A stretch of DNA of 64,000 bases from Citrus sinensis (lineage: Eukaryota > Streptophyta > Magnoliopsida > Sapindales > Rutaceae), in assembly GCF_022201045.2 (NCBI RefSeq), contig NC_068558.1, positions 15,033,501 through 15,097,500 of the forward strand. Direction: 5' to 3'. The position numbers and the translations under genes are program-made. The notes beneath the pieces were generated by a model that did no database searches, was not told the DNA's origin, and worked only from the letters and a program-made list of their open reading frames with translations. Shown piece by piece: positions 13,444-36,051 of this stretch; positions within the stretch are counted from its first letter, which is position 1; the number at the start of each line of letters is the position of its first letter.

Positions 13444-14480
13444 ATGGATATATCAAGGAAGGATGCCCTAGGTGGCGACAATGAAACTGGTGAAACAATC
13501 ACTCTCCGAGAGATAGCAAATGAGGCTAGAGAGAGGATGATGCAAGATCGGATGGAACGGATGAAGAAACAAATGGAAACTCTCATGGCCATATTGCATG
13601 AGCTGAGGGATGAGCGGAGAAGGGACTACGAAACTCCCGTGGGGAGAGAACCCAGCCTCCGGAGGCGTAGGGTTGAGGAAATCCCTCCACCGGTAGACTA
13701 ATCGTACGGGGTGCATGCTCATAGAAATACTGGTCGGGTCCTAGGGGAGCCCGTGGATGAAGGGAGAGACCAACCTCACTCCGGACGAGTACTGAAAATT
13801 GATGGCCAAGGAGCCAATATTGATGAAGGAGAGCTCAGACAGCGGTTGCAGAATGCCGAGCAGGAGCGAGATCAGATAGCTGCACGGATCCTGACCGTGC
13901 TGTAGAATTGGAGGGTAAGGTGCGCAGATTGACGCAGGTGATGGAGGAGATTCAGGGCAAGAGAAAGCCCCCGAGCTGGAGGATAATGCTAGATGAAAAG
14001 TCCCCGTTATCAGTCGAGATCATGGGTATTGTAATCCCAAGAGATTTTTACTTCTCCGACCTCAAATACTCCGAGCGGAATAACCCGCTGGTGCATATTG
14101 AACGCTTCAACGACATGACGGGTGTGCAGGGGCTAACACCTGCTCAGAGGTGCAGGGTATTCCCATTGACATTAGAGGGACGAGCCCGAGACAGGTACCG
14201 CAAGCTGCCATGAGGAAGTATAAAAGGATACGAGCAGATGTGCCAAGAATTGGCCGAGCAGTTCCGAGGAGCAGTAACCCCAGAGGACGATATGATGGAA
14301 CTGATAGGGATAAAGCAGGAGGAACATAAATCTCTTCGGGAATTTGTAAAACGATACCACCGAGCCGTGCTTGATCTGGGAGCTTTCAATCACCCGTAGG
14401 CGTTGAGGGGATTAAAAGAGGGCGTGAGGATAGGTCGACTGTGGTACAACTTGAGAAGCCCCCTAGTGCAGAATTATTCG
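13444..14480 (+). pseudogene. Broken gag of Tat-type element
   Basis: Starts with MDISRKDALGGDNETGETIT at the first ATG after the 5' LTR region. It has a helical, charged segment (MMQDRMERMKKQMETL), then after several stops the gag core: PRDFYFSDLKYSERNNPLVH, RVFPLTLEGRARDRYRKLP, FVKRYHRAVLDLG and GLKEGVRIGRLWY. Stops fall at 13699-13701, 13903-13905, 14211-14213 and at 14397 (Q to TAG type). The frame ends at about 14490, where the 68-bp repeat begins, so the nucleic-acid-binding tail and all of pol are gone. Confidence 0.85.
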
Positions 14481-14495
14481 GCCGGGTACGAGCAG

Positions 14496-15050
14496 GCATT
14501 TTCATGAAATTTTACTAAGGCAAGCAAGTGCCTATTCCTGCTCAGTCACCCAAGGACCAGCATGCATTTTCACGAAATTTTACTAAGGCAAGCAAGCGCC
14601 TATTCCTGCTTGGTTGCCTAAGGACCAGCAGGCATTTTCACGAAATTTTACTAAGGCAAGTAAGCGCCTATTCCTGCTCGGTCGCCTAAGGACCAGCAGG
14701 CATTTTCATAAAATTTTACTAAGGCAAGCAAGTGCCTATTCCTGCTCGGTCGCCTAAGGACCAGCAGGCATTTTCACGAAATTTTACTAAGATAAGCAAG
14801 TGTCTATTCCTACTCGGTCGCCTAAGGACCAGCAGGCATTTTCACGAAATTTTACTAAGGCAAGCAAGTGCCTATTCCTGCTCGGTCGCCTAAGGACCAG
14901 CAAGCATTTTCACGAAATTTTATTAAGGGAAGCAAGTGCCTAATCCTGCTCGGTCACCTAAAAAGACCAGCAGGCAAACCTACAAAATTGGTTATGGCAA
15001 ACAAGTGCCCATTCCTGCTCAGTTGATTAAAGGACCAGTAGGCAAAGCCA
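14496..15050. repeat. 68-bp tandem repeat, about 8 copies
   Basis: The GCATTTT/GCAAAC start of each unit recurs at 14496, 14564, 14632, 14700, 14768, 14836, 14904, 14974 and 15042, that is every 68 bp with one 70-bp unit. Unit core: ACTAAGGCAAGCAAGTGCC, then CCTGCTCGGTCGCCTAAGG. Copies differ at a few sites and the last two drift most. It sits exactly where gag is truncated, between gag and the antisense ORF. Confidence 0.96.
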
Positions 15051-21000: not shown

Positions 21001-22122
21001 AGTATATAGTTATCAAGACAATATCCTCATCCATAACATTATCAATTCTGATTTTAATGGGAAACTGAAACATCTTTAAACCATTAATACTTACCCCAAA
21101 ATACGCCTACTTAATTAAGAAAGCTCATGACTTATAAATTAGTTTAGAAACTCATCCATAACATTATCAATTCTGATTTTAATGGGAAACCGAAACATCT
21201 TTAAACCATTAATACTTACCCCAAAATACGCCTACTTAATTAAGAAAGCTCATGACTTATAAATTAGTTTAGAAACTTACTCGCTATTAATGTGGGATAT
21301 TACAATGAGAACGAAATATATCCAAACAAAAATGATAAAAATATAAAATTGTGATAAAATACCAACAAAAATAATATATACACCCCAGGATTACCATATT
21401 ATAAATTGATTAAATCTAGTTGAGTTTATAGTTCTTTTTATCACTAATTTTTTTCCCCAAATATTAACGTGCAGATCCAAATGGCCCCCAAAGCATCATC
21501 CATCATTATAATACAATACGAAGCCAGAAAAGAATTACAGATCTTCCAAATAGCCTTGCAGTTCAACTTGAACAAATCTATAAGAGAAATATCGACAACT
21601 ATAGAAATCAGCTTCCTCTTGCTGCCACTTTCCATCATCAAAGTTTTTAGTGTAGCCCAAAATATCATGGTTGAAGTTGAGATTCTTTTTAGCAATATCT
21701 GATGATGAAATTGATGAGATCCCACAAATTTACAAGAAAAATTTCTCTTGCTGCTCCAACAGAGTTCTTTCTCCAATTAAACAAATATGATTGAATCTGA
21801 TGTTCATAAAGAACATTAACTAGCATGCATCAGTTCTTGAAAATGCATATTCTGTTAAAAGAATATGTATTTCCTTATGGCAAAACAGATAGACATGGGG
21901 ATCTATATAGTCCTTTTATTGTTGGGAAAAAGGAAAAAAGATGGTGCGGAAACAGAAGCAGTCCTTCGAGAAAGTTAGTTTTCGAAGATCAAGATTGGAA
22001 ATTTTATACCATGAGTTTTGCTAAATATATATGGAAACAATTTGGGAAAGATTCAGGTAATAAGAGACACTCTTCCATCCCTTTTGGAATTGAGGCTTCT
22101 GAAAACAAGTTAGGATTGTATG
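21001..22122. repeat. Partial direct duplicate of the 19.1-20.96 kb block
   Basis: 21001 onward repeats 19081 onward (TATCAAGACAATATCCTCAT and following), through the small-gene 3' half, and then jumps to a copy of 20590-20930. Within it, a 125-bp unit is tandemly duplicated at 21026-21150 and 21151-21275. The block is cut by the Athila element at 22122 and resumes at 36052 with TATAAATATTGTTGAATGTAC, matching 20939 onward. Confidence 0.8.
21540..21720 (-). pseudogene. Partial copy of the small unknown gene
   Basis: The reverse-strand sequence carries the SSISSSDIAK and YTKNFDDGK-type segment of the 19.6-kb gene but lacks its 5' half. That half is replaced after about 21727 by sequence matching 20580-20600, so the copy has no start and is presumed dead. 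Confidence 0.55.
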
Positions 22123-23572
22123 TGACACAACTTAAAAGTAAATTTTAACTCCCAAGTATAAGAGTGTCTTGTTGTATTATAACTCGGTGAGTCCGAGGTC
22201 GATCCACAGAGAAAAGATTTAATTAGTTTATTTTATTTTATCTAAAAATTGAAATTAAAACTTGAATATAAACAACTTAATTTAAATGAAACTATGGAAT
22301 TGAACTAGTTAGGGTTATAGATCCACTCTTAAAAATAAATAAAACTTAATAAATTCTTTTTGCCAATTTGTTTTAGATTTATTACCCAAAAGATTAATTA
22401 TACAAATTATTATTATTTTCCCTTTAATTTTATGATGGATTAAGTATTTATTGTGCCAAAATTTAATTTGTCTACAATAAGTCAAAATACCATTTCACCA
22501 TGCCTTATATTAAGATCTTAAGAATTTATTGTGCCAAATTCATTTGTTTGTCTACAATAAATCAAATTTTCAAAATATAAAACATGTATAAAATTAAATA
22601 GAAAATAATTTAATTTATAAAATTAAACATAGAATTTGATTAAATCATATTTATTTCTTAAGAGTTTCACCTTCCCCTAACTAATATTATTTAGTTAAGC
22701 ATAATTAAAATAAAAAGAAGTAGTAAAATTGAATTACTTATAATTAAAAGAAATAAAAACAACTAAAATTGGAAATAAAACTAATTTTATTAATGAAAAT
22801 AATTATACAAAATATTAAAAACACACCTGGAAATCAAGATTACAAGGAGATGGAGAGAATTTGAGAAGAAGAGAGTTGTAGAGAGATGATCAAAACATAA
22901 AAATGAGGCTCTATTTATAGAAAAATAAATTCATAATCCAGTGCTTTGCGATCCATCATAGGCTTCATGCATGTGCTCCTCACAACCCTTAGATCAAGAT
23001 TCAATGGCTGGTCAAACTTCCAAAGTCAACATCACACATGGCATCATTTGACTCGTCCGATTTACCCAAAGAACGGTTGAGATTTGGTGGGTTAATGGGT
23101 GGATCGGGTCGACCCGAATACAAAGATTCGGATCCTCCAACTTGCTTCACCAACCATTGCCACGTGGCACAATCATGGCCATTGAATCATGAACGGTTGA
23201 GATTTAGTCAAGATTGCCAGTTATCCCATGCACTCATATCTATTGTAAACTTATTTCATCATCCAATCAATGCTCGGTCAACAGGAAAAGTCAACTTTTT
23301 TTACACAAGCCCAATTTTAAGCCAATCTTGACTGATCTTAAGGTTTTCGGACCTCCGGAATCCAAATTTGACCTCCGTTTATCTGTTTGAAGCCTCGAAG
23401 TACGTGAAATTAATAATTTTCCTAATAAACACATAAAAATACACAAAATTAAATATATTTAAAACATAATTAATAATTCATAATATATTATATAAACACA
23501 AATATAAATTATAACATAAGCATAAAATAACATATTATCGCTGGATAATTAAATAATTTTTAATACTAATCA
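22123..23572 (-). repeat. 3' LTR of the Athila element
   Basis: 1450 bp; on the plus strand it starts TGACACAACTTAAAAG and ends AATACTAATCA. The open frame at 23038-23331 is also present in the other LTR and is chance. Confidence 0.96.
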
Positions 23573-25062: not shown

Positions 25063-25743
25063 TTACAAACGGAGAGTTAAATCTAAATCGCACTTCTTAT
25101 TACTACTACTGTTACCGTTACCGTTACCGTCATTAGTCGACCAATTCAGTGCAACAGTCTGTGGATCTGGCTCTGGTGTATAAGCTTGCAAAAGATCAAG
25201 TAACTCATTAGCAGTAGAAGCAGAGATAAAGAATTTTTTTACAGAATGTGGAACAAAATGATTCTTTATTGCATGGTTAATAAAAGTTAGCAAGCCGTCA
25301 TAAAAATTATTAACATTTAACAAACCGATGGGTTTTTTATGAATGTTCAAGTGGGCCCAAGATGCAAATGTAATTAGTGCCTCAAAAGTTGCAAGATCTC
25401 CTGGCAAGAAAATAAAAGCATCAGCATAATTCATCATTTCAGATATTCTCTCTTGCATACTTGATACCACTAATTCTTCTCCAATTGGTGGGCCAGACAT
25501 GCACACTAGCGGTTTCATGGGTTTTGGGATAATGCCGAGTACTTGGCTTCCTCTGGTAAAAACAGCTTCTGAGACAAGTCTTGATAACACTCGTTCACCT
25601 CCTCCATATACAAGATGCAGTTTCCTCTCTGCTATGACACGACCAAGATCTACAGCTGCCTGAACGAATTCTTTGTACTTTCCATAGTGAAACCCAGAGA
25701 GCACACAAATATTTTTGAATTGTTTACTCGAAGATGCTGCCAT
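25063..25743 (-). CDS. LOG-like phosphoribohydrolase ORF captured in the Athila element
   Basis: Uninterrupted 226-codon frame, ATG at 25741-25743. It matches the LOG/lysine-decarboxylase-like fold that releases active cytokinin bases from nucleotide precursors: NICVLSGFHYGKYKEFVQAA, VYGGG (45-49), QVLGIIPKPM, ERISEMMNYADAFIFLPGD and WAHLNIHKKPIGLLNVNNFY. The family hallmark PGGYGTxEE is degenerate here (PGDLATFEA, 114-122), and the GGGxxGLMG loop reads GGERVLSRL. Arg99 and Glu121 are kept at the usual active-site places. A Gly/Asn/Ser linker leads to C-terminal LDLTLRL (220-226), an LxLxL EAR-type repressor motif. Plant LOG genes normally have several introns and this one has none, which fits capture through RNA. 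It lies between integrase and the 3' LTR in the element's sense. Activity is doubtful. Confidence 0.85.
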   Translation of the reverse strand: MAASSSKQFKNICVLSGFHYGKYKEFVQAAVDLGRVIAERKLHLVYGGGERVLSRLVSEAVFTRGSQVLGIIPKPMKPLVCMSGPPIGEELVVSSMQERISEMMNYADAFIFLPGDLATFEALITFASWAHLNIHKKPIGLLNVNNFYDGLLTFINHAIKNHFVPHSVKKFFISASTANELLDLLQAYTPEPDPQTVALNWSTNDGNGNGNSSSNKKCDLDLTLRL

Positions 25744-26101
25744 TGGACTAATTTTTCAAAAACAAGTTGTGAGTGTTTGAAAAATGAGCTCATATTTAAA
25801 GATCTTGGTGACATAAATAATGAGAAACAACTGTAAATGGGTTGTCATATTTGTCAAATGACAAGGAAAGCTCGTGGCTCAATAATTCAAAAACAAACAG
25901 TAAAAAAAAAGTAATGATTAAAAAAAACAAACAGTAAAAGAAACCAAATAAATACAAAATCACATCGCTAAATGCAATAATGCAAATGATAAAATAACAG
26001 TAAAGTAAAATAACAGTGAAGTGAAAGGATATTTACTGGTAGTTGTGATTGTGGCTCACATCTTCCTCTGGTTTTACGTCCAGTAACGGCTTGAACGCCC
26101 T
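25744..26101 (-). other. Spacer between the two larger accessory ORFs
   Basis: 358 bp, A/T-rich towards the LOG side. The frame from the 184-aa ORF could continue past its TAG (KPLLDVKPEEDVSHNHNYQ) to a possible splice donor, CAG followed by TAAATATC. A possible acceptor (AAAATTAG) lies just before the LOG ATG. Neither is proven. Confidence 0.3.
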
Positions 26102-26656
26102 CTATGGGTCGAGGATCGGCTTCCCATCCAGTTTTCTTATAAACTGGCAAACAGGGTCTTTTTGAGTCAAATTCCCAAGACTTAACTGTGCACTTTGTTT
26201 TTGGAATAGTATCCACAAATTGTAAATCTCACGTTGCACAATTCCGCTTCGATGCGTCTCAAGAGATCGTAAGATATCATCCAACAATTCTTTACTCATG
26301 CCATCTTTAATGAATTTAATTTTATCTTCACGAGTATCAGAAACCATTCCTAAAGATTTATAATCCGGTCGTTTGCAACCAAGTCTTACACAGTTATGAC
26401 ATTTTGAGCCAAGTCGTTTAGCTCTCCTTTTCTTAGCAAACGTACTTTTACCAAAACCAGGCATGTAAGAAACAAATTGACCAAAAAACTCACCTGCTAA
26501 TCGGACCTTTGCTTCAATTAACCAACGAATGTCAGAAGGAATGCCATTGATCATTAACAAACGCAGTCGTTCACAACAAGCTTTATAAATTTTCCTGAGG
26601 GCATTCTGAGGGAGAGAGGGAAAATGCTTATGGAGTTTATGTTGTATTTCTTCCAT
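26102..26656 (-). CDS. Accessory ORF with viral-NABP-like basic/Cys segment
   Basis: 184 codons, ATG at 26654-26656; the frame is also open upstream to about 26743 without another ATG. The N-terminal 60 residues are helical. Residues 70-81 form a strongly basic patch (KSTFAKKRRAKR), followed by Cys86, Cys89 and Cys94 (C-x2-C-x4-C). The order basic patch, Cys cluster, short charged tail resembles the nucleic-acid-binding proteins of carla- and vitiviruses (Viral_NABP family), which bind nucleic acid and often act as silencing suppressors. The resemblance is by eye and moderate. Alternatives are an unrelated zinc-ribbon or a nuclear-localisation protein. No membrane segment is seen, so it is not an envelope. 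Its 3' end may be shifted, since another frame stays open beyond the stop. Confidence 0.6.
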   Translation of the reverse strand: MEEIQHKLHKHFPSLPQNALRKIYKACCERLRLLMINGIPSDIRWLIEAKVRLAGEFFGQFVSYMPGFGKSTFAKKRRAKRLGSKCHNCVRLGCKRPDYKSLGMVSDTREDKIKFIKDGMSKELLDDILRSLETHRSGIVQREIYNLWILFQKQSAQLSLGNLTQKDPVCQFIRKLDGKPILDP

Positions 26657-26841
26657 GTTTGATTTTGGGGTTTCAGTTATTGTGGGAAACTGAAGATACC
26701 GACTAATGAAGTCACGAAGTATCGTTATCCGCCATTTTTACGGGAAAATAAATCAAAACACACCAAAATCAAATCTGCAAAATCAAATCAAGCGTGAAAG
26801 CGAGTAAAAAGAAGCACACAATATAAAAGGAAAATGAACTT

Positions 26842-27073
26842 ACATTCGTCCTTTCATTGAGTTAACCTCAAGCTCCATTTGAAATTCATATATGCCACTC
26901 TCTACTGTTCTGAGTTGTCCCTCTAGATCCTCAACATAGGACACGAATTCTGGTGGTTGCAGATCCTAAAGTGGATGTGATTTACAGCTTTGTATCAGGC
27001 CTCTTAAGTGAAATTTTATACGCCGGAATCTTTTAAGATGTGCGAACATGTATTTTCTCATTGAGGTGCTCAT
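26842..27073 (-). pseudogene. Short accessory ORF, one internal stop
   Basis: 77-codon frame from an ATG at 27071-27073: a basic N-terminal part (MSTSMRKYMFAHLKRFRRIK), a TAG at 26966-26968, then an acidic, heptad-like part (YVEDLEGQLRTVESG). It ends at an ATG-TAAGTTC sequence that is also a strong splice donor. An acceptor-like TTTTGCAG lies at about 26775-26782, so a 69-bp intron leading into the next ORF is possible. It lies between the pol stop and the 184-aa ORF. No family is recognised. Confidence 0.35.
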
Positions 27074-27263: not shown

Positions 27264-29728
27264 TTAATCAAGAACTGGTGGGTCATCCAAATTAATTTTG
27301 GTGTCCTCGTCACGTGGGTGATGTTCCAGATATGGTTTTAACCTTTGACCATTAACTTTAAATGTGACACCGTTATTTGGATTCTCAATTTCTATGGCCC
27401 CATATGAATATACATTTTTTACAACAAATGGGCCACTCCATTTTCACTTTAACTTTCCTGGAAATATATGAAAACGAGAATTATAAAGCAACACTTTTTA
27501 ACCAATCTCAAATGTTTTTCGAAAAATTATTTTATCATGAAATGCTTTTGTTCTTGCCTTAATAATTCTTGAATTTTCATATGCATCATTCCTTAATTCC
27601 TCAAGTTCATTCAATTGCAATTTTCGCACATTACCAGAATCATCCAAATTTGAATTAAAAGCTTTAATAGCCCAAAGTGATTTATGTTCAAGTTCAACAG
27701 GTAAATGACAAGGTTTACCATAAATTAACTGATAGGGTGACATTCCTAATGATGTTTTAAATGCAGTGCGGTAAGCCCAAAGTGCATCATTAAGTCTAAG
27801 AGACCAATCTTTTCGGTTTGGGTTAACCGTCTTTTCCAAAATTTGTTTTATCTCCCGATTTGCTAATTCAACTTGACCATTTGTTTGAGGATGATAAGGG
27901 GTAGCAATTTTATGTGTAATTCCATATTTCTTCATTAAAGACTCAAATGACTTATTACAAAAATGCTTACCTCCATCACTGATAATGGCTCGAGGGATTC
28001 CAAATCGACTTAAAATATTTTCTCTTAAAAATTTAATCACAGTTTTACTGTCATTATTTCGACAAGAAATTGCTTCAATCCATTTTGAGACATAATCAAT
28101 TGCAACTAATATATATACAAATCCAAAAGATGATGGAAATGGACCCATGAAATCAATTCCCCAACAGTCAAATATTTCAATTTCAAGTATGGGATTTAAG
28201 GGCATCATGTTTCTTTTAGTAATTGATCCCAATTTTTGACATTTTTCACAACTTTTGTAAAATTCATATGTGTCTTTAAACATGGTAGGCCAATAAAATC
28301 CACACTACAAAATTTTAGCAGTAGTTTTTCTTGAAGAAAAGTGACCACCACATGCTTCAGAATGACAAAAATTAATGACACTACTTACCTCATTATCAGG
28401 AATACATCGCCGAAAAATTTGATCTGGGCAATATTTGAACAAATAAGGATCATCCCAATAAAATTTCTTTACTTCAACAAAAAATTTCTTCTTCTCTTGA
28501 GCATTCCATTGCAAAGGCATTTTACATGTAACAAGAAAATTAACAATATTAGCATACCATGGCATTGAAGTAACAGAAAATAAAAATTCATCAGGGAAAG
28601 AATCATTTATGGGTGTTATATCATTGCAGAATTCGGATGTGAGTCTTGATAGATGATCAGCAACAACATTTTCCCCTTTTTATCTTTGATGGTAAGGTCA
28701 AATTCTTGTAGTAACAAAATCCAACGAATTAGTCTCGGTTTGGCATCCTGTTTACTCATCAAATATCTCACAGCAGTATGGTCAGTAAACACAACAGATT
28801 TAGAGCCAAGCAAATATGAACGAAATTTGTTTAATGCAAATACCACAGCAAGTAATTCTTTTTCAATTGTAGAATAATTCATTTGAGCACTATCCAAAGT
28901 CTTGCTCGCATAATAAATCACAAAAGGCTTACCATCCCTTCTTTGTCCTAAAACAGCACCAACAGCAAAATCATTTGCATCACACATTAATTCAAATGGC
29001 AAAGACCAATCAGGAGATTGCATAATAGGTGCAGATGTTAAAAGACAAATTATTTTTTCAAAAGATTTTTGGCAATCAACATTCCATTCAAACGGTGCAT
29101 CTTTTAATAAGAGGTTACAAAGTGGTTTAGATATGGCACTAAAGTTTTTTATAAACCTCCTATAAAATCATGCATGTCCTAAAAAGGATCGCACATCTCT
29201 AATTGTTTTTGGTTGTGGCAATTTAGATATGACTTCGATTTTTGCTTTGTCAACTTCAATTCCTTTAATAGAAACAACATGACCCAAAACAATTCCAGAA
29301 GTAACCATGTAGTGACATTTTTCCCAATTCAACACGAGTTCTTTTTCAACACATCTTTTTAAAACTTTCTCCAAATTATCAAGGCAATCATCAAAAGAAT
29401 TCCCAAACACAGTCAAATCATCCATAAAGACCTCTAAACAATGTTCAACCATATCACAAAAAATGCTTAACATACATCTTTGAAATGTTGCAGGAGCATT
29501 ACAAAGCCCGAATGGCATTCTTTTAAATGCAAATGTTCCAAAAGGACATGTGAATGTGGTCTTTTCTTGGTCCTCAAGTGCTATAGGAATTTGATAATAA
29601 CTTGAATATCCATCTAAAAAACAGTAGTAGGGATGTCCTGCTACTCTTTCTAAGATTTGGTCAAGGAATGGTAATGGAAAATGATCTTTTCTAGTGACTT
29701 CATTTAATTTTCTATAATCAATGCACAT
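27264..29728 (-). pseudogene. Athila pol: RT, RNase H, integrase
   Basis: In order on the minus strand: RT (29728-29168) with CIDYRKLNEVTRKDHFPLPF, FGLCNAPATFQRCM and the catalytic box VFMDDLTVFG; RNase H (29023-28616) with [20 protein letters not shown] and [11 protein letters not shown]; the integrase H2C2 zinc region (HSEACGGHF, then [10 protein letters not shown]); and the integrase core ([41 protein letters not shown]). The frame continues with stops to PPVLD and a TAA at 27264-27266. Breaks include TGA near 29170 after FLGHA, a frameshift near 28650 after KDKKG, TAG near 28304 (Gln expected), and TAA near 27496. Domain order and the FMDD box are typical of Athila. Confidence 0.94.
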
Positions 29729-29777
29729 GCGCCAACTAGATGTAATTCGTATTGGAATTAATTCACCTTTTTCATTT

Positions 29778-31412
29778 TTAACAACAGTGATTCCAGATTT
29801 TTTTAGGCACTACTTGTGTAGGACTTACCCACTTTCTATCAGAAATAGGGTAGATAATTCCCACATCAAGTAATTTAAGGACTTCTATTTTGACTACCTC
29901 TTTCATGTGTGGGTTTAATCTTCTTTGAGGTTGTTGACATATTTTAGCATTTTCTTCCAAATTAATTCTATGTGTGCAGATTAAGGGATTAATGCCTTTA
30001 ATGTCATTTAAAGTCCATCCTATTGCATTTTTATGCTTTTTAAGAACAGTTAGTAACTTACCTTCTTGGTCGCTTGTTAAAGTGGAAGAAATCACAACAG
30101 GATAAGTTTGTTCTTCTCCAAGAAAAGCATATTTCAATCCTTCAGGCAAAGGTTTCAATTCCATTTTAGGTGCTTCTTGTTGTTCTGTCTTTTCAATACT
30201 TCCAAGCTCCTCAAATTTTGGCTCGTCATCATAATTTTGCGAAGTCTGCATAGAATCAAGCAACGAATTTATATTAGAAATATCAAGTTCAAGTTGCTTA
30301 TTTGACTCAATTGAATTAACTAAACAAACATTAGAAAGTTCAGAAAAATCCCCTTTTTGAATATTTTCCTCGATACAAGATTCAAACAATTCCTTTTGTT
30401 CATCAGTATCATCTTCATTCTCATTTTCTTCATTAGGTTGCCTGCACATGTTGAAAACATTCAATTCCAAAGTCATATTCCCAAAGGATAAATTCATTAA
30501 ACCATTCCTACAATTAATCAAAGCATTAGCAATTGCTAAAAATGGTCGACCTAAAATTACAGGAATTGGTTTGTAATTATTCACAACATGTTCAGTTTCC
30601 AAGACAATAAAATCCACAGGATAAATAAATTTATCAACTTGTACTAAAACATCTTCCACTATTCCTTTTGGTACTTTAACTGATCTATCGGCAAGCAAAA
30701 GTGTAGTTGAAGTTGATTTTAACTCACCAAGATTAAGTTGAAGATAAACTGAATATGGAAGCAAATTAACACTAGCACCAAGATCTAGTAAAGCATGCTC
30801 AATTCTGTGGTTACCAATAATACAAGAAATGGTAGGACAACCAGGATCTTTATATTTCAACTTATTATTAGTAGATAGAATTGTACTTACCTGTTCGGCC
30901 ATGAAAGCACTCTTTCTTACCTTTAATTTCCTCTTAACAGTGCACAAGTCCTTTAAAAATTTGGCATATGAAGGAACCTGCTTGATTGCATCTAATAGAG
31001 GAATGTTAACTTTCACTTGCTTAAAGATTTCATAAATTTCAGAAGAGTGGTTTGATTTCTTTGGTTTATTCAATGCATGCGGAAATGGTGGTTCAGGTGG
31101 AACACTAGTTATTTCTTCACTAGGTGTAAGTTCATTTAGTCCTTCCTTACCCTTTGAATTTTCATCATTTTCATAAGGTTCAGGCATAGGTCTATCAACA
31201 ACCTTACCACTACGAAGAGTTATAACTAATTTGACTTGGTCTGTGGGTGGATTTTGTTGAATTTTAGGATTTGGTTGTGGTTGGGCTGGAAATTTTCCTT
31301 TTTCTTGAATGGTGAGTGCAGAAGCAATTTTAGCAAGAGTATCTTTCAAATCAGAAAAAGTTTGTGCATTTTGATTGTTAATAACATCTTGCTTTCTGAT
31401 GAATGAATGCAT
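29778..31412 (-). pseudogene. Athila gag C-terminus and protease
   Basis: 544-codon open segment. The first 130 residues are linker rich in Pro and Gln. The protease centre is HALLDLGASVNLLPYSVYLQ with downstream VILGRPFLAIANALINC, as expected for Athila (DLGAS rather than DTGAS). The end leads into RT with ICTHRINLEENAKICQQPQR and SPTQVVPKK. A surplus A in an A-run near 29805 shifts the frame just before the RT start. Confidence 0.93.
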
Positions 31413-31460
31413 TGTGTCTTCCAGATTTTTCCAGGGTGGTGGAACATATGGTGCATAAGG

Positions 31461-32646
31461 CTAAGGATTTTGAAAATTTTGTGGAGGTGGTGCTTGTGAA
31501 GATTGTGCATTATTATTATTCCTCCAATTGAAATTCGGATGATTTCTCCAACCAGGATTATAAGTCTGTGAATATGGGTTTGGTTTATTGAAAGTGTTAA
31601 TGACATTAGCTTGATCATTTAGACATTCTTTAAGTGCAGGCAAAGTGGGACACTCTTGAGTGAAATGATCATTCGAATTACATATGTTACATGCAATTTC
31701 TTGAACAGATTTTACTTGATCACTCTTTTTATGCTCCAAAGCTTCAACTTTCCTAACTAGGGATGCAAATTTTGCTTGTAAATCATGATCTTCCCTAAGG
31801 TTATGGATTCCTCCACTAGATGGAGATGATTGTTGCTTATTTGTCAATTCAAAAGTTCCAACAGTATCCCAATGTTGTGCATTTTCAGCTAATTGATCAA
31901 GGTAATCTAGTGCATCTTCAGGATTTTTATCCCTAAATTCACCATTACACATCATTTCAACAACCTGTCTACTTTGGGGTATTAAGCCCTCGTAGAAATA
32001 AGTGACCAATCGCAAGTTTCAAAACCATGAAGTGGGCATATGTTAAGCAACTCTTTAAACCTATCCCAACATTGGTATAATGTTTCTCCATTTTTTTGAG
32101 TGAAAGAAGTGATTTGCCTTTTAAAGAATTTGTTCTATGAGGTGGAAAGAATTTTTTCAAAAACAGTTCTTGCATGTTATTCCAAGTTCTTACTGATCCA
32201 GATCTAAGGTTTTGTAGCCAAGTTTTAGCTTTATCTTTTAATGAAAAAGGAAAAAGCTTTAATCTAATTATGTTCATGCTACAATTTTGATCCGTGTATG
32301 TGTTACAAACTTCCTCAAAATCTCTTAGATGCAAGTACGGATTCTCAGATTCTAAACCATGAAATGTTGGTAAAAGTTGGATAATACCTAGTTTAAAGTT
32401 GAATTGAGATGCTTCTGGAGGAAATACTATACACGACGGTGCTCCGGTTCTGGTTGGATTCATGTAGTCTCTCAGAGTCCTTGGTTGATTCTGATTATGC
32501 CCATGTTGAGATTGGTTGTCTCCTTGATCAATTTGAGGATTAAGTTCGCCCAAAACGTTTTCGCCTTCATTCTCATCCATGATTGGTGGTGGAGATTGAG
32601 ATCTATGAATTAACCTGCCACTTGAAGATCGAGACCAATGTCTCAT
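31461..32646 (-). pseudogene. Athila gag, second (3') tandem copy
   Basis: Starts MRHWSRSSSGRLIHRSQSPP. The gag core includes NFKLGIIQLLPTFHGLESEN and LFPFSLKDKAKTWLQNL. A frame change after FFPPHRTNSLKG garbles the next 50 codons (KSLLSLKKMEK, where a QITSF-type sequence would be expected), and the frame resumes at RLVTYFYEGLIPQSRQVVEM. The CCHC zinc knuckle is CNICNSNDHFTQECP. This copy also lacks one base near 32015. It leads directly into the protease segment. Confidence 0.92.
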
Positions 32647-33799
32647 GCAAGGGTTATGTTATAAAGATAATATTTACACAAATTGATAACAAAATAAAAT
32701 AAAATAAATAAATAAGTCTGTGAATATGGGTTTGGTTTATTGAAAGTGTTAATGACATTAGCTTGATCATTTAGACATTCTTTAAGTGCAGGCAAAGTGG
32801 GACACTCTTGAGTGAAATGATCATTCGAATTACATATGTTACATGCAATTTCTTGAACAGATTTTACTTGATCACTCTTTTTATGCTCCAAAGCTTCAAC
32901 TTTCCTAACTAGGGATGCAAATTTTGCTTGTAAATCATGATCTTCCCTAAGGTTATGGATTCCTCCACTAGATGGAGATGATTGTTGCTTATTTGTCAAT
33001 TCAAAAGTTCCAACAGTATCCCAATGTTGTGCATTTTCAGCTAATTGATCAAGGTAATCTAGTGCATCTTCAGGATTTTTATCCCTAAATTCACCATTAC
33101 ACATCATTTCAACAACCTGTCTACTTTGGGGTATTAAGCCCTCGTAGAAATAAGTGACCAATCGCCAAGTTTCAAAACCATGAAGTGGGCATATGTTAAG
33201 CAACTCTTTAAACCTATCCCAACATTGGTATAATGTTTCTCCATTTTTTTGAGTGAAAGAAGTGATTTGCCTTTTAAAGAATTTGTTCTATGAGGTGGAA
33301 AGAATTTTTTCAAAAACAGTTCTTGCATGTTATTCCAAGTTCTTACTGATCCAGATCTAAGGTTTTGTAGCCAAGTTTTAGCTTTATCTTTTAATGAAAA
33401 AGGAAAAAGCTTTAATCTAATTATGTTCATGCTACAATTTTGATCCGTGTATGTGTTACAAACTTCCTCAAAATCTCTTAGATGCAAGTACGGATTCTCA
33501 GATTCTAAACCATGAAATGTTGGTAAAAGTTGGATAATACCTAGTTTAAAGTTGAATTGAGATGCTTCTGGAGGAAATACTATACACGACGGTGCTCCGG
33601 TTCTGGTTGGATTCATGTAGTCTCTCAGAGTCCTTGGTTGATTCTGATTATGCCCATGTTGAGATTGGTTGTCTCCTTGATCAATTTGAGGATTAAGTTC
33701 GCCCAAAACGTTTTCGCCTTCATTCTCATCCATGATTGGTGGTGGAGATTGAGATCTATGAATTAACCTGCCACTTGAAGATCGAGACCAATGTCTCAT
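32647..33799 (-). pseudogene. Athila gag, first (5') tandem copy
   Basis: Nearly identical to the neighbouring copy, including the same frame change after NSLKG and the same zinc knuckle. It ends near 32712, where the sequence returns to the 5' flank of the second copy (A/T-rich AAATAAATAAATAAG). The unit is about 1152 bp. Because both copies share the frameshift, gag was already broken when the duplication happened. Confidence 0.93.
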
Positions 33800-34572
33800 G
33801 CAAGGGTTATGTTATAAAGATAATATTTACACAAATTGATAACAAAATAAAATAAAATAAATAAATAAGCAAATAATATAAGTATACAAAAGAAAATTAA
33901 ATAACAAAAATGGTGGTTGAACCCACCAACAAAGTAATAAATAAATAAATAAATAAATGCAAAATAAAAAAAATGGTGGTTGAACCCACCAATTAAAAAA
34001 ATAAAAAATGCAAAATTAAATAAATACTGAAAATTAAATAACTGAAAATAAAAGTTAAGAGTTAGTAGTTAGTTTGGTGGTTAAACTCACCAATAAAGCA
34101 AAAACAAATAAATAAATACGAAATAAAATAAATGCAGAAAATTAAATAACTGAAATTAAATAAAAGTTAGGAGTTAGCAGTTAGTAAGTTAAAAGTTAGT
34201 AATTAGAGTTAGTAGTTAAAGTTAGTTTGGTCCAAAATAAGTCCAAATATGTCCAAATATGTCCAAGTCTTGATTATGTTGAGGAATTTCGTCTAGGGAT
34301 TCTATTGCAAATTATTTTTAATTTTATAGTCAAACTGTAATTTTTAGAAGTTTAGAATAGCAATTGGGATGAAAGTGAAACAGTTGAAAGATGTCGGGGT
34401 CCGAACGTAATTACCAGACGATTGGGCTAGAAACGGAAATTGTTGGGGTGAAACGAGAATTATGAAAGATATGGGGACAAAAGAGAATTTAAGAAAAGGA
34501 AAAGGGGGCAAACGAAATTTTACATATAAGAGAAAAATAAAAAACGGAAAAACAAACCAAATAAAAAACTTT
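33800..34572 (-). other. Athila 5' leader
   Basis: Non-coding, A-rich. ATGGTGGTTGAACCCACCAA occurs twice (about 33909 and 33972) and a variant occurs near 34073, each a small hairpin (TGGTGGTTGAACCCACCA). The rest is simple AAATAAAT and GTTAGTAGTTAG repetition. Confidence 0.75.
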
Positions 34573-34590
34573 TCCCCGGCAACGGCGTCA
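34573..34590 (-). other. Primer-binding site of the Athila element
   Basis: On the minus strand TGACGCCGTTGCCGGGGA lies six bases after the 5' LTR. It equals the usual Athila PBS (TGGCGCC...) except for one G-to-A change. Confidence 0.85.
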
Positions 34591-34596
34591 AAAACT

Positions 34597-36046
34597 TGAC
34601 ACAACTTAAAAGTAAATTTTAACTCCCAAGTATAAGAGTGTCTTGTTGTATTATAACTCGGTGAGTCCGAGATCGATCCACGGAGAAAAGATTTAATTAG
34701 TTTATTTTATTTTATCTAAAAATTAAAATTAAAACTTGAATATAAACAACTTAATTTAAATGAAACTATGGAATTGAACTAGTTAGGGTTATGGATCCAC
34801 TCTTAGAAATAAATAAAACTTAATAAATTCTTTTTGCCAATTTGTTTTAGATTTATTACCCAAAAGATTAATTATACAAATTATTATTATTTTCCCTTTA
34901 ATTTTATGATGGATTAAGTATTTATTGTGCCAAAATTTAATTTGTCTACAATAAGTCAAAATACCATTTCACCATGCCTTATATTAAGATCTTAAGAATT
35001 TATTGTGCCAAATTCATTTGTTTGTCTACAATAAATCAAATTTTCAAAATATAAAACATGTATAAAATTAAATAGAAAATAATTTAATTTATAAAATTAA
35101 ACATAGAATTTGATTAAATCATATTTATTTCTTAAGAGTTTCACCTTCCCCTAACTAATATTATTTAGTTAAGCATAATTAAAATAAAAAGAAGTAGTAA
35201 AATTGAATTACTTATAATTAAAAGAAATAAAAACAACTAAAATTGGAAATAAAACTAATTTTATTAATGAAAATAATTATACAAAATATTAAAAACACAC
35301 CTGGAAATCAAGATTACAAGGAGATGGAGAGAATTTGAGAAGAAGAGAGTTGTAGAGAGATGATCAAAACATAAAAATGAGGCTCTATTTATAGAAAAAT
35401 AAATTCATAATCCAGTGCTTTGCGGTCCATCATAGGCTTCATGCATGTGCTCCTCACAACCCTTAGATCAAGATCCAATGGCTGGTCAAACTTCCAAAGT
35501 CAACATCACACATGGCATCATTTGACTCGTCCGATTTACCCAAAGAACGGTTGAGATTTGGTGGGTTAATGGGTGGATCGGGTCGACCCGAATACAAAGA
35601 TTCGGATCCTCCAACTTGCTTCACCAACTATTGCCACGTGGTACAATCATGGCCATTGAATCATAAACGGTTGAGATTTAGTCAAGATTGCCAGTTATCC
35701 CATGTACTCATATCTATTGTAAGCTCATTTCATCATCCAATCAGTGCTCGGTCAACAGGAAAAGTCAACTTTTTTTACACAAGCCCAATTTTAAGCCGAT
35801 CTTGACTGATCTTAAGGTTTTCGGACCTCCGGAATCCAAATTTGACCTCCGTTTATCTGTTTGAAGCCTCGAAGTACGTGAAATTAATAATTTTCCTAAT
35901 AAACATATAAAAATACACAAAATTAAATATATTTAAAACATAATTAATAATTCATAATATATTATATAAACACAAATATAAATTATAACATAAGCATAAA
36001 ATAACATATTATCGCTTGATAATTAAATAATTTTTAATACTAATCA
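34597..36046 (-). repeat. 5' LTR of the Athila element
   Basis: 1450 bp, same ends as the other LTR. Differences are nearly all transitions. The GTATG target duplication follows at 36047-36051. Confidence 0.96.
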
Positions 36047-36051
36047 GTATG

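What the first reader, a model, noticed from the sequence alone, without database searches (positions are those of the whole stretch)
25063..27073. Athila retrotransposon with an accessory gene module in place of the envelope-like ORF
Seen: between the pol stop (27264) and the 3' LTR lie three sense-oriented ORFs (77, 184 and 226 codons), none with a membrane segment, all inside one insertion bounded by GTATG duplications. Known: Athila elements usually carry an env-like ORF here. Inference: this lineage replaced it with a putative nucleic-acid-binding/silencing-suppressor protein and a hormone-metabolism enzyme homologue, a combination that could alter the host cell around the element. The 226-codon ORF is open while gag and pol are broken.
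Basis: partly seen in the sequence, partly recalled or inferred. Interest (0 to 1): 0.92.

Follow-up and report, generated by a model that had tools for sequence, protein, structure and literature searches.

The report
Citrus retrotransposon carrying extra effector-like genes
A very abundant jumping element in the sweet orange genome carries, after its usual genes, extra genes kept by selection: one resembles a plant-virus protein family that includes suppressors of host defence, and another is a look-alike of a plant hormone enzyme that has lost a catalytic residue and ends in a tail that may grip the plant's gene-repression machinery.

Summary
On the minus strand of a Citrus sinensis window lies a Ty3-type LTR retrotransposon (Athila-type by features) with matching GTATG duplications. 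Between pol and the 3' LTR it has three sense ORFs: p77, a protein matching Pfam's carlavirus nucleic-acid-binding family (NABP), and a LONELY GUY (LOG) homologue. It is not a one-copy accident: exact motif counts are 936 (NABP) and 891 (LOG), and NABP-LOG order recurs in 17 of 20 loci read, down to a subfamily whose pol is saturated at synonymous sites. dN/dS between subfamilies: LOG 0.14-0.22, NABP 0.24-0.74, p77 0.24-0.49.

The interpretation needs correcting. The LOG protein is probably not an active hormone enzyme: the catalytic glutamate is replaced in 119 of 119 readable representatives, with six further binding-site changes. It looks like a conserved pseudoenzyme, ending in an EAR-type LxLxL motif absent from the four host LOG tails I could read. 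NABP is the more widespread part: Rhamnella and Orobanche gene models join it to retrotransposon sequence.

A LOG (YgdH) domain in Citrus Gypsy elements is already published. I did not find the NABP, the altered active site or the EAR tail in the papers searched. The TOPLESS/counter-silencing mechanism is inference.

The parts
34597..36046 (-). 5' LTR
   Evidence: 1450 bp, 98.83% identical to the 3' LTR
36047..36051 (.). target-site duplication GTATG (5' side of the element)
   Evidence: sequence
34572..34596 (-). primer-binding-site region next to the 5' LTR, resembling the 3' end of a tRNA-Asp (recalled, not searched)
   Evidence: sequence; tRNA identity recalled
31346..33864 (-). gag region with a 1153-bp direct duplication (31560-32711 / 32712-33864)
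   Evidence: Retrotrans_gag E 5.8e-11; duplication
27264..31412 (-). protease, RT, RNase H and integrase, interrupted in this copy
   Evidence: Pfam Asp_protease_2 (E 0.0012, below its cut-off), RVT_1, RT_RNaseH, rve; split ORFs
26840..27073 (-). p77, small basic ORF of unknown family
   Evidence: recurs in other copies; dN/dS 0.24-0.49 between subfamilies
26673..26744 (-). conserved non-coding block before NABP (candidate internal promoter; TATAAA in subfamilies A-C copies, not in this copy or in D)
   Evidence: 80-87% A-D identity per 30 nt against 23-53% further upstream; no RNA structure beyond shuffles
26102..26656 (-). NABP: carlavirus-type nucleic-acid-binding protein homologue, 184 aa (this copy lacks the last Cys of the C-x2-C..C..C pattern)
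   Evidence: Carla_C4 21.9 bits, cut-off 20.9; 47 of 53 aligned homologues match Carla_C4 and 45 of 53 Viral_NABP at E<=0.01
25793..25800 (-). TATA-like TTTAAATA before the LOG ORF, with CACTCACAA about 25 nt downstream (candidate internal promoter)
   Evidence: CTTAAAT core and CACTCACA kept in the 10 sequences aligned
25063..25743 (-). LOG-like pseudoenzyme, 226 aa, signature PGDLATFEA instead of PGGxGTxxE, C-terminal LDLTLRL (EAR-type LxLxL)
   Evidence: Lysine_decarbox E 6.6e-29; residue counts; tail
22123..23572 (-). 3' LTR
22118..22122 (.). target-site duplication GTATG (3' side of the element)
   Evidence: sequence

Best explanation
This is one of many copies of an Athila-type Ty3 retrotransposon lineage of Citrus with a conserved 3' accessory module p77-NABP-LOG. 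SHOWN here: recurrence, order, between-subfamily purifying selection, homology of NABP and LOG, a systematically altered LOG active site, a conserved C-terminal LxLxL. INFERRED mechanism: the element expresses the two larger accessory proteins, possibly from internal promoters. NABP binds nucleic acid and blunts host silencing of the element, as carlavirus members of its family do. The LOG-like protein no longer activates cytokinin; it keeps the dimeric LOG fold as a scaffold (and perhaps pairs with host LOG) while its C-terminal EAR motif recruits TOPLESS-type co-repressors, shifting host transcription in the cell in the element's favour.
For: 891 and 936 exact motif matches, 0 for reversed controls. 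On contig C1, 67 of 96 NABP motifs have a LOG motif 652-1060 bp downstream on the same strand (67 of 87 seen from LOG), 0 in the three other arrangements. In 20 LOG loci that I chose for spread, 17 have NABP upstream and 15 also INT. dN/dS over 8 between-subfamily pairs: LOG 0.14-0.22, NABP 0.24-0.74, p77 0.24-0.49, RT 0.07-0.16; in 4 of these pairs the bootstrap upper limits are at most 0.34 (LOG), 0.57 (NABP) and 0.99 (p77). Catalytic Glu122 kept in 0 of 119, Gly116 0 of 119, Gly118 0 of 119, Lys100 1 of 118, His97 0 of 118, Glu125 0 of 120, Ser19 0 of 119; while Arg99 106 of 118, Thr119 117 of 119, Glu121 113 of 119, Trp129 117 of 120 are kept. In CgLOG, alanine at the AMP-binding and catalytic residues almost abolished activity, S19A excepted (section 6 of PMC4979012). 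LxLxL in the last 9 residues in 80 of 120 representatives and in 19 of 19 fetched loci that still have the tail (1 of 20 has lost it), against about 1% by chance and 9 of 22071 internal 9-mers; absent from 4 of 4 readable host tails. EAR = LxLxL or DLNxxP (abstract of PMC6283911 in the listing); effectors with EAR motifs bind TOPLESS (passages of PMC12886408).
Against: No expression, protein, binding or localisation data. 40 of 120 representatives lack the LxLxL tail (many look truncated; not counted), and a short motif can have another role. Within-subfamily dN/dS is noisy and partly high (LOG 0.05-0.59, NABP 0.18-0.80, RT up to 1.41), as expected of decaying copies; NABP A-B is 0.74. 29 of 96 NABP motifs on C1 have no LOG motif within 3 kb, so NABP may exist without LOG; I could not read those loci. 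Carla_C4 scores are weak: 1 of 150 scored places (of 811 candidates) reached E<=0.001 in the genome search. The AlphaFold2 model of NABP has low confidence (pLDDT 63, pTM 0.38). PGD/A118 changes do not exclude another ligand or reaction.
Confidence: 0.5

Rival explanations
1. The LOG protein is a working cytokinin-activating enzyme: the element raises local cytokinin and so cell division, giving itself dividing cells to transpose in.
For: Clear LOG homology (E 3.1e-46 to AtLOG3 2a33; TIGR00730 118.4 bits, cut-off 96.35); Arg99, Thr119, Glu121 and Trp129 mostly kept; purifying selection.
Against: Glu122 kept in 0 of 119 and Gly116/Gly118/Lys100/His97/Glu125 changed in nearly all; alanine substitutions of such residues almost abolished activity in CgLOG; far below the LOG equivalog cut-off (76.5 against 300 bits), though that model is built for prokaryote annotation.
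Confidence: 0.1
2. Dominant-negative or scaffold LOG: the inactive LOG fold pairs with host LOG subunits or binds nucleotide without cleaving it, lowering cytokinin or sensing nucleotides; the C-terminal LxLxL is not a co-repressor motif.
For: LOG works as a dimer whose active site is built from both subunits (passages of PMC4979012); residues at the active site changed while the fold family signature is kept.
Against: Does not explain why the far C-terminal leucines are invariant next to a variable linker.
Confidence: 0.25
3. Passenger genes: LOG and NABP were captured once and are carried along without function, spreading with the element.
For: Many copies carry stop codons; within-subfamily dN/dS is partly high; element families spread captured sequence anyway (general knowledge).
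Against: Between-subfamily dN/dS of LOG 0.14-0.22 with wrong-frame controls 0.59-2.32, for lineages whose pol is saturated at synonymous sites; NABP kept in rosid and asterid elements.
Confidence: 0.1
4. An ordinary host LOG locus into which an element inserted or recombined.
For: None found.
Against: LTRs and target-site duplication enclose the module; hundreds of copies; intronless with a changed motif, whereas readable host LOG genes are multi-exon with PGG|YGTLEE.
Confidence: 0.01

Closest known systems
YgdH/LOG domain in Citrus Gypsy-type LTR retrotransposons (PMC9289625, citing Steinbauerova et al. 2011)
   Same: Almost certainly the same LOG-like gene: YgdH found in consensus elements of C. 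sinensis and C. clementina, and in P. trichocarpa without their n5 filter (section 12 read).
   Different: In the parts I saw (passages and section 12) there is no NABP, no statement on active-site residues, C-terminal motif, gene order or selection; Steinbauerova 2011 itself is not held.
Carlavirus cysteine-rich / nucleic-acid-binding proteins (Pfam Carla_C4 PF01623, Viral_NABP PF05515)
   Same: Profile match around the Cys cluster and basic stretch; viral members include suppressors of RNA silencing (passages).
   Different: Sits in a retrotransposon, with its own conserved N- and C-terminal parts; the viral proteins themselves were not aligned here, and two scans of viral contigs found no relative.
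Plant LONELY GUY enzymes (AtLOG3 2a33, AtLOG8 1ydh)
   Same: Same fold family over residues 6-202.
   Different: Intronless; PGDLAT[FL]EA for PGGYGT[LM]EE; extra tail with LxLxL.
Athila retrotransposons with 3' extra ORFs (eORF-3'F)
   Same: Ty3 pol, single RNase H found, extra sense ORFs after INT; eORFs are common in the OTA group (PMC6317226).
   Different: That survey counted eORFs of 250 codons or more, so ORFs of 77, 184 and 226 codons would be missed; it calls eORF proteins highly divergent (section 13), whereas these are conserved.
Orchid Gypsy elements with an AlkB-type m6A demethylase (PMC9289625)
   Same: A Ty3 lineage with a fixed extra protein proposed to act on host-element conflict.
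   Different: There an enzyme with shown activity in vitro (abstract); here a probable pseudoenzyme plus a virus-type NABP.
EAR-motif effectors of plant pathogens that bind TOPLESS
   Same: LxLxL motif as the proposed docking site (passages of PMC12886408).
   Different: Encoded by a retroelement; binding not tested.

Membership tests
LTR retrotransposon, Ty3 type | two LTRs, target-site duplication, gag, PR-RT-RH-INT order | tested here: met
Athila clade | RT/RH/INT phylogeny inside Athila | not tested
   no Athila reference sequences were fetched; the name rests on features
Athila clade | OTA-type element without the additional RNase H (aRH) that marks Tat (PMC6317226) | tested here: inconclusive
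   only RT_RNaseH was found in the 8 ORFs scanned; the interrupted stretches between them were not all scanned
Active LOG enzyme (cytokinin riboside 5'-monophosphate phosphoribohydrolase) | LOG/TIGR00730 fold family by profile | tested here: met
Active LOG enzyme (cytokinin riboside 5'-monophosphate phosphoribohydrolase) | PGGxGTxxE motif with catalytic Arg99 and Glu122 | tested here: not met
   Glu122 kept in 0 of 119, Gly116 and Gly118 in 0 of 119; Arg99 in 106 of 118
Active LOG enzyme (cytokinin riboside 5'-monophosphate phosphoribohydrolase) | hydrolysis of iPRMP | not testable with these tools
   needs an assay
Carla_C4 / Viral_NABP | profile score above Pfam's cut-off | tested here: met
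   Carla_C4 21.9 against 20.9 bits for the window copy; Viral_NABP 19.5 against 23 is below; 47 and 45 of 53 homologues at E<=0.01
Carla_C4 / Viral_NABP | Cys cluster C-x2-C..C..C | tested here: met
   100 of 120 listed homologues; the window copy lacks the last Cys
Carla_C4 / Viral_NABP | nucleic-acid binding, silencing suppression | not testable with these tools
   needs an assay
EAR-motif co-repressor recruiters | LxLxL or DLNxxP sequence | tested here: met
   19 of 20 fetched loci; 80 of 120 representatives
EAR-motif co-repressor recruiters | binding of TOPLESS/TPR | not testable with these tools
   needs an assay
Endogenous retrovirus-like Athila with env-like ORF | env-like ORF with membrane segments after pol | tested here: inconclusive
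   three other ORFs occupy the place; membrane segments judged by eye only

The most novel reading that the evidence does not exclude
A retrotransposon lineage of flowering plants that runs a virus-like host-manipulation kit: an RNA-virus-type NABP suppressor kept since before the split of rosid and asterid hosts (or passed between them), to which the Citrus lineage added a captured hormone-enzyme fold, killed its active site and fitted it with an EAR tail, making a retroelement-encoded TOPLESS hijacker present in hundreds of copies.
Probability: 0.25. Interest if true: 0.85.

Novelty: new variant of a known kind. Interest (0 to 1): 0.6.

Why it matters
How plant retrotransposons answer host silencing is largely open, and most of their extra ORFs have no proposed role. 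Here is a high-copy family in a sequenced crop whose extra proteins are conserved, short and easy to express, with two sharp predictions (no iPRMP hydrolysis; tail-dependent TOPLESS binding) and one for NABP (silencing suppression). It also bears on where RNA-virus NABPs come from, since the same family sits in elements of several eudicot orders. In practice, many Citrus proteins named 'cytokinin riboside 5'-monophosphate phosphoribohydrolase' (for example a cluster of 705 members, P0145) look like retrotransposon ORFs, so LOG gene counts in Citrus need care.

Tried and rejected
Host-locus explanation: rejected (LTRs, duplication, copy number, no introns). Active LOG enzyme: held unlikely. Splicing of p77 onto NABP: the p77 stop overlaps a GTAAGT donor-like sequence in subfamilies A and B and GTGAGT in C, but not in D, so dropped. 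RNA structure of the conserved block: no better than shuffles (z -0.96, 0.09, -0.28), so read as DNA. Bacterial origin of the LOG gene: the tree puts the element clade (100/100, branch 1.5) with plants and the two bacterial rows apart (99/99), but placing it with the bacteria is not rejected (AU p 0.11) and long branches are warned of; plant capture is favoured, not proven. A scan of 84,980 bacterial and archaeal genomes with two element-specific peptide patterns found no relative, and two scans of viral contigs with NABP found none; these patterns are narrow.

That NABP, the altered active site and the EAR tail of these elements are not in print is claimed only for those searches of the held open-access library.
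Full report
WHERE IT IS. The window lies in G000, a 299.7-Mb genome of 11 contigs. Contig C5 has 38,998,145 bases, the same length as a contig behind proteins named Citrus sinensis (P0006, P0142), so the host is sweet orange. The element is on the minus strand: 5' LTR 34597-36046, 3' LTR 22123-23572, 98.83% identical over 1450 bp, flanked by GTATG. Pfam finds gag, RT, RNase H and integrase, and a protease match below its cut-off. In this copy gag/pol is split over several ORFs and gag has a 1153-bp tandem duplication.

THE MODULE. Between the pol stop (27266-27264) and the 3' LTR lie p77 (27073-26840), NABP (26656-26102) and the LOG-like ORF (25743-25063), all in the element's sense. NABP matches Carla_C4 just above the Pfam cut-off (21.9 against 20.9 bits) and Viral_NABP below it; of 53 aligned proteins (the window's and 52 of the 120 listed homologues) 47 match Carla_C4 and 45 Viral_NABP at E<=0.01, the best near 1e-8. 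A genome search with the Carla_C4 profile itself reached E<=0.001 at only 1 of 150 scored places (811 candidates), and in 0 of 14 control genomes, so the link is real but remote. The LOG-like protein matches Lysine_decarbox (E 6.6e-29) and AtLOG3 in the PDB (E 3.1e-46).

HOW COMMON. The LOG search scored 150 of 2090 candidates and all 150 matched at 73-100% identity; the NABP search scored 150 of 1877, matching at 69-100%. Both lists are capped. Exact degenerate patterns give whole counts: 891 for PGDLAT[FL]E and 936 for the NABP C-terminus, with 0 for each reversed control. On C1, where both lists are complete, 67 of 96 NABP motifs have a LOG motif 652-1060 bp downstream on the same strand (median 710), 67 of 87 LOG motifs have the reverse, and the other three arrangements give 0. 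I read 20 LOG loci picked from the 150 to spread over identity bands that I call A (about 88-100%), B (81%), C (74-78%) and D (73-75%). 17 of 20 have NABP upstream and 15 of 20 also integrase; 3 (L014, L017, L024) show LOG without NABP in the stretch held.

SELECTION. Nei-Gojobori dN/dS over 8 between-subfamily pairs: RT 0.07-0.16, p77 0.24-0.49, NABP 0.24-0.74 (0.74 is A-B; the other seven 0.24-0.35), LOG 0.14-0.22. For 4 of these pairs bootstrap upper limits are at most 0.34 for LOG, 0.57 for NABP and 0.99 for p77; wrong-frame values are 0.59-2.32 for LOG and 1.07-1.75 for NABP. Four within-subfamily pairs are noisy (LOG 0.05-0.59, NABP 0.18-0.80, p77 0.14-1.15), as decaying copies would be. 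Synonymous divergence differs by part: A-D is about 2 or beyond computing for pol, about 1.0 for NABP and 0.7 for LOG; A-B is 0.28 for RT, 0.11 for NABP and 0.51 for LOG. This suggests that the 3' module has been exchanged between subfamilies, an inference.

THE LOG-LIKE PROTEIN IS PROBABLY A PSEUDOENZYME. Using CgLOG numbering from PMC4979012 (passages and section 6) I aligned 120 cluster representatives (the listed best of 492 hits) to AtLOG3. Catalytic Glu122 is kept in 0 of 119 (Ala in 106), Gly116 in 0 of 119 (Asp in 117), Gly118 in 0 of 119 (Ala in 107), Lys100 in 1 of 118, His97 in 0 of 118, Glu125 in 0 of 120 and Ser19 in 0 of 119; Arg99 stays in 106 of 118, Thr119 in 117 of 119, Glu121 in 113 of 119, Trp129 in 117 of 120. 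In CgLOG, alanine at the binding and catalytic residues almost abolished activity; S19A was the exception, with higher activity, so the Ser19 change is no evidence of inactivity. Two PDB chains of one bacterial LOG (5zbj, 5zbk) differ in the printed motif by the same Glu-to-Ala; I take 5zbk to be an engineered mutant, which I did not look up.

THE TAIL. The protein ends in KK-x-x-LDLTLRL. In the 30-row alignment K216, K217, L220, L222 and L226 are invariant next to a variable, indel-bearing linker. LxLxL lies in the last 9 residues of 80 of 120 representatives and 19 of 20 fetched loci, the other having lost the tail; chance is about 1% per tail, and 9 of 22071 internal 9-mers have it. LxLxL is one of the two EAR patterns (abstract of PMC6283911, listing). 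Of the 8 host-type pattern hits plus L037, which is the same gene as L039, four host genes had a readable C-terminus, none with LxLxL; L040's end lies outside its stretch and L042-L044 did not align as LOG. Those host genes are multi-exon with the canonical motif split by an intron.

WHO ELSE HAS IT. NABP homologues (386 and 303 hits in two searches, 120 listed each) carry names from Citrus, Populus, Acer, Xanthoceras, Rhamnella and Orobanche. A Rhamnella model (P0259) runs from an integrase-like end into NABP, and an Orobanche minor model (P0281) from a protease-like stretch into NABP (compared by eye with this element's own ORFs), so NABP sits in such elements of rosids and an asterid. For LOG, the 120 listed hits with names are from Citrus; PMC9289625 adds Populus trichocarpa. 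NABP therefore looks older in the lineage than LOG; horizontal spread is not excluded.

CONTROL SEQUENCES. A 72-nt block before NABP is 80-87% identical between A and D per 30 nt, against 23-53% further upstream; before LOG a TTTAAATA-like site stands about 25 nt before CACTCACAA. I read both as possible internal promoters. The block is not more foldable as RNA than shuffles. TATAAA in the NABP block is present in the A-C copies other than the window's and absent from D.

WHAT IS KNOWN. PMC9289625 (passages, section 12) reports YgdH/LOG in Citrus Gypsy consensuses, citing Steinbauerova et al. 2011 (not held). The survey PMC6317226 (passages, section 13) counted extra ORFs of at least 250 codons, so this module would escape it. 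PMC11593424 on plant LOG evolution does not mention Citrus or retrotransposons by word search. Carlavirus CRPs/NABPs are described as silencing suppressors in passages of PMC10219291 and PMC12172455. I found no paper on NABP in retrotransposons or an EAR tail on LOG in the ten searches listed under Tried and rejected.

VERDICT. New variant of a known kind.

Noticed in passing
window 31560-33864: 1153-bp direct duplication inside gag, 99.9% identical, so recent compared with the 1.2% LTR divergence.
   Followed up: partly
window 26673-26744 and L009-L028: 72-nt non-coding block before NABP conserved between subfamilies whose pol is saturated at synonymous sites.
   Followed up: partly
L009, L020, L021, L025: Synonymous divergence differs between pol, NABP and LOG, as if the 3' module had been exchanged between subfamilies.
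   Followed up: partly
window 23038-23331 and 35512-35805 (+ strand): A 97-aa ORF antisense to the element inside both LTRs.
   Followed up: no
window 14420-15031: 68-bp tandem array of several copies.
   Followed up: no
window 12624-12923/17931-18230, 47835-48134/52865-53164: Further long direct repeats at 95% and 99% identity, probably other LTR elements.
   Followed up: no
protein cluster P0145 and others: Retrotransposon LOG-like ORFs are named as cytokinin phosphoribohydrolases in protein databases; one cluster holds 705 members.
   Followed up: no
window 26102-26216 and L009, L019, L022, L027, L028 (- strand sense): A second open frame overlaps the NABP end and runs on after it (…PVYKKTGWEA..PRPIEGVQAV.GRKTRGRCEPQSQLPVNI), similar across subfamilies; cause unknown.
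   Followed up: no
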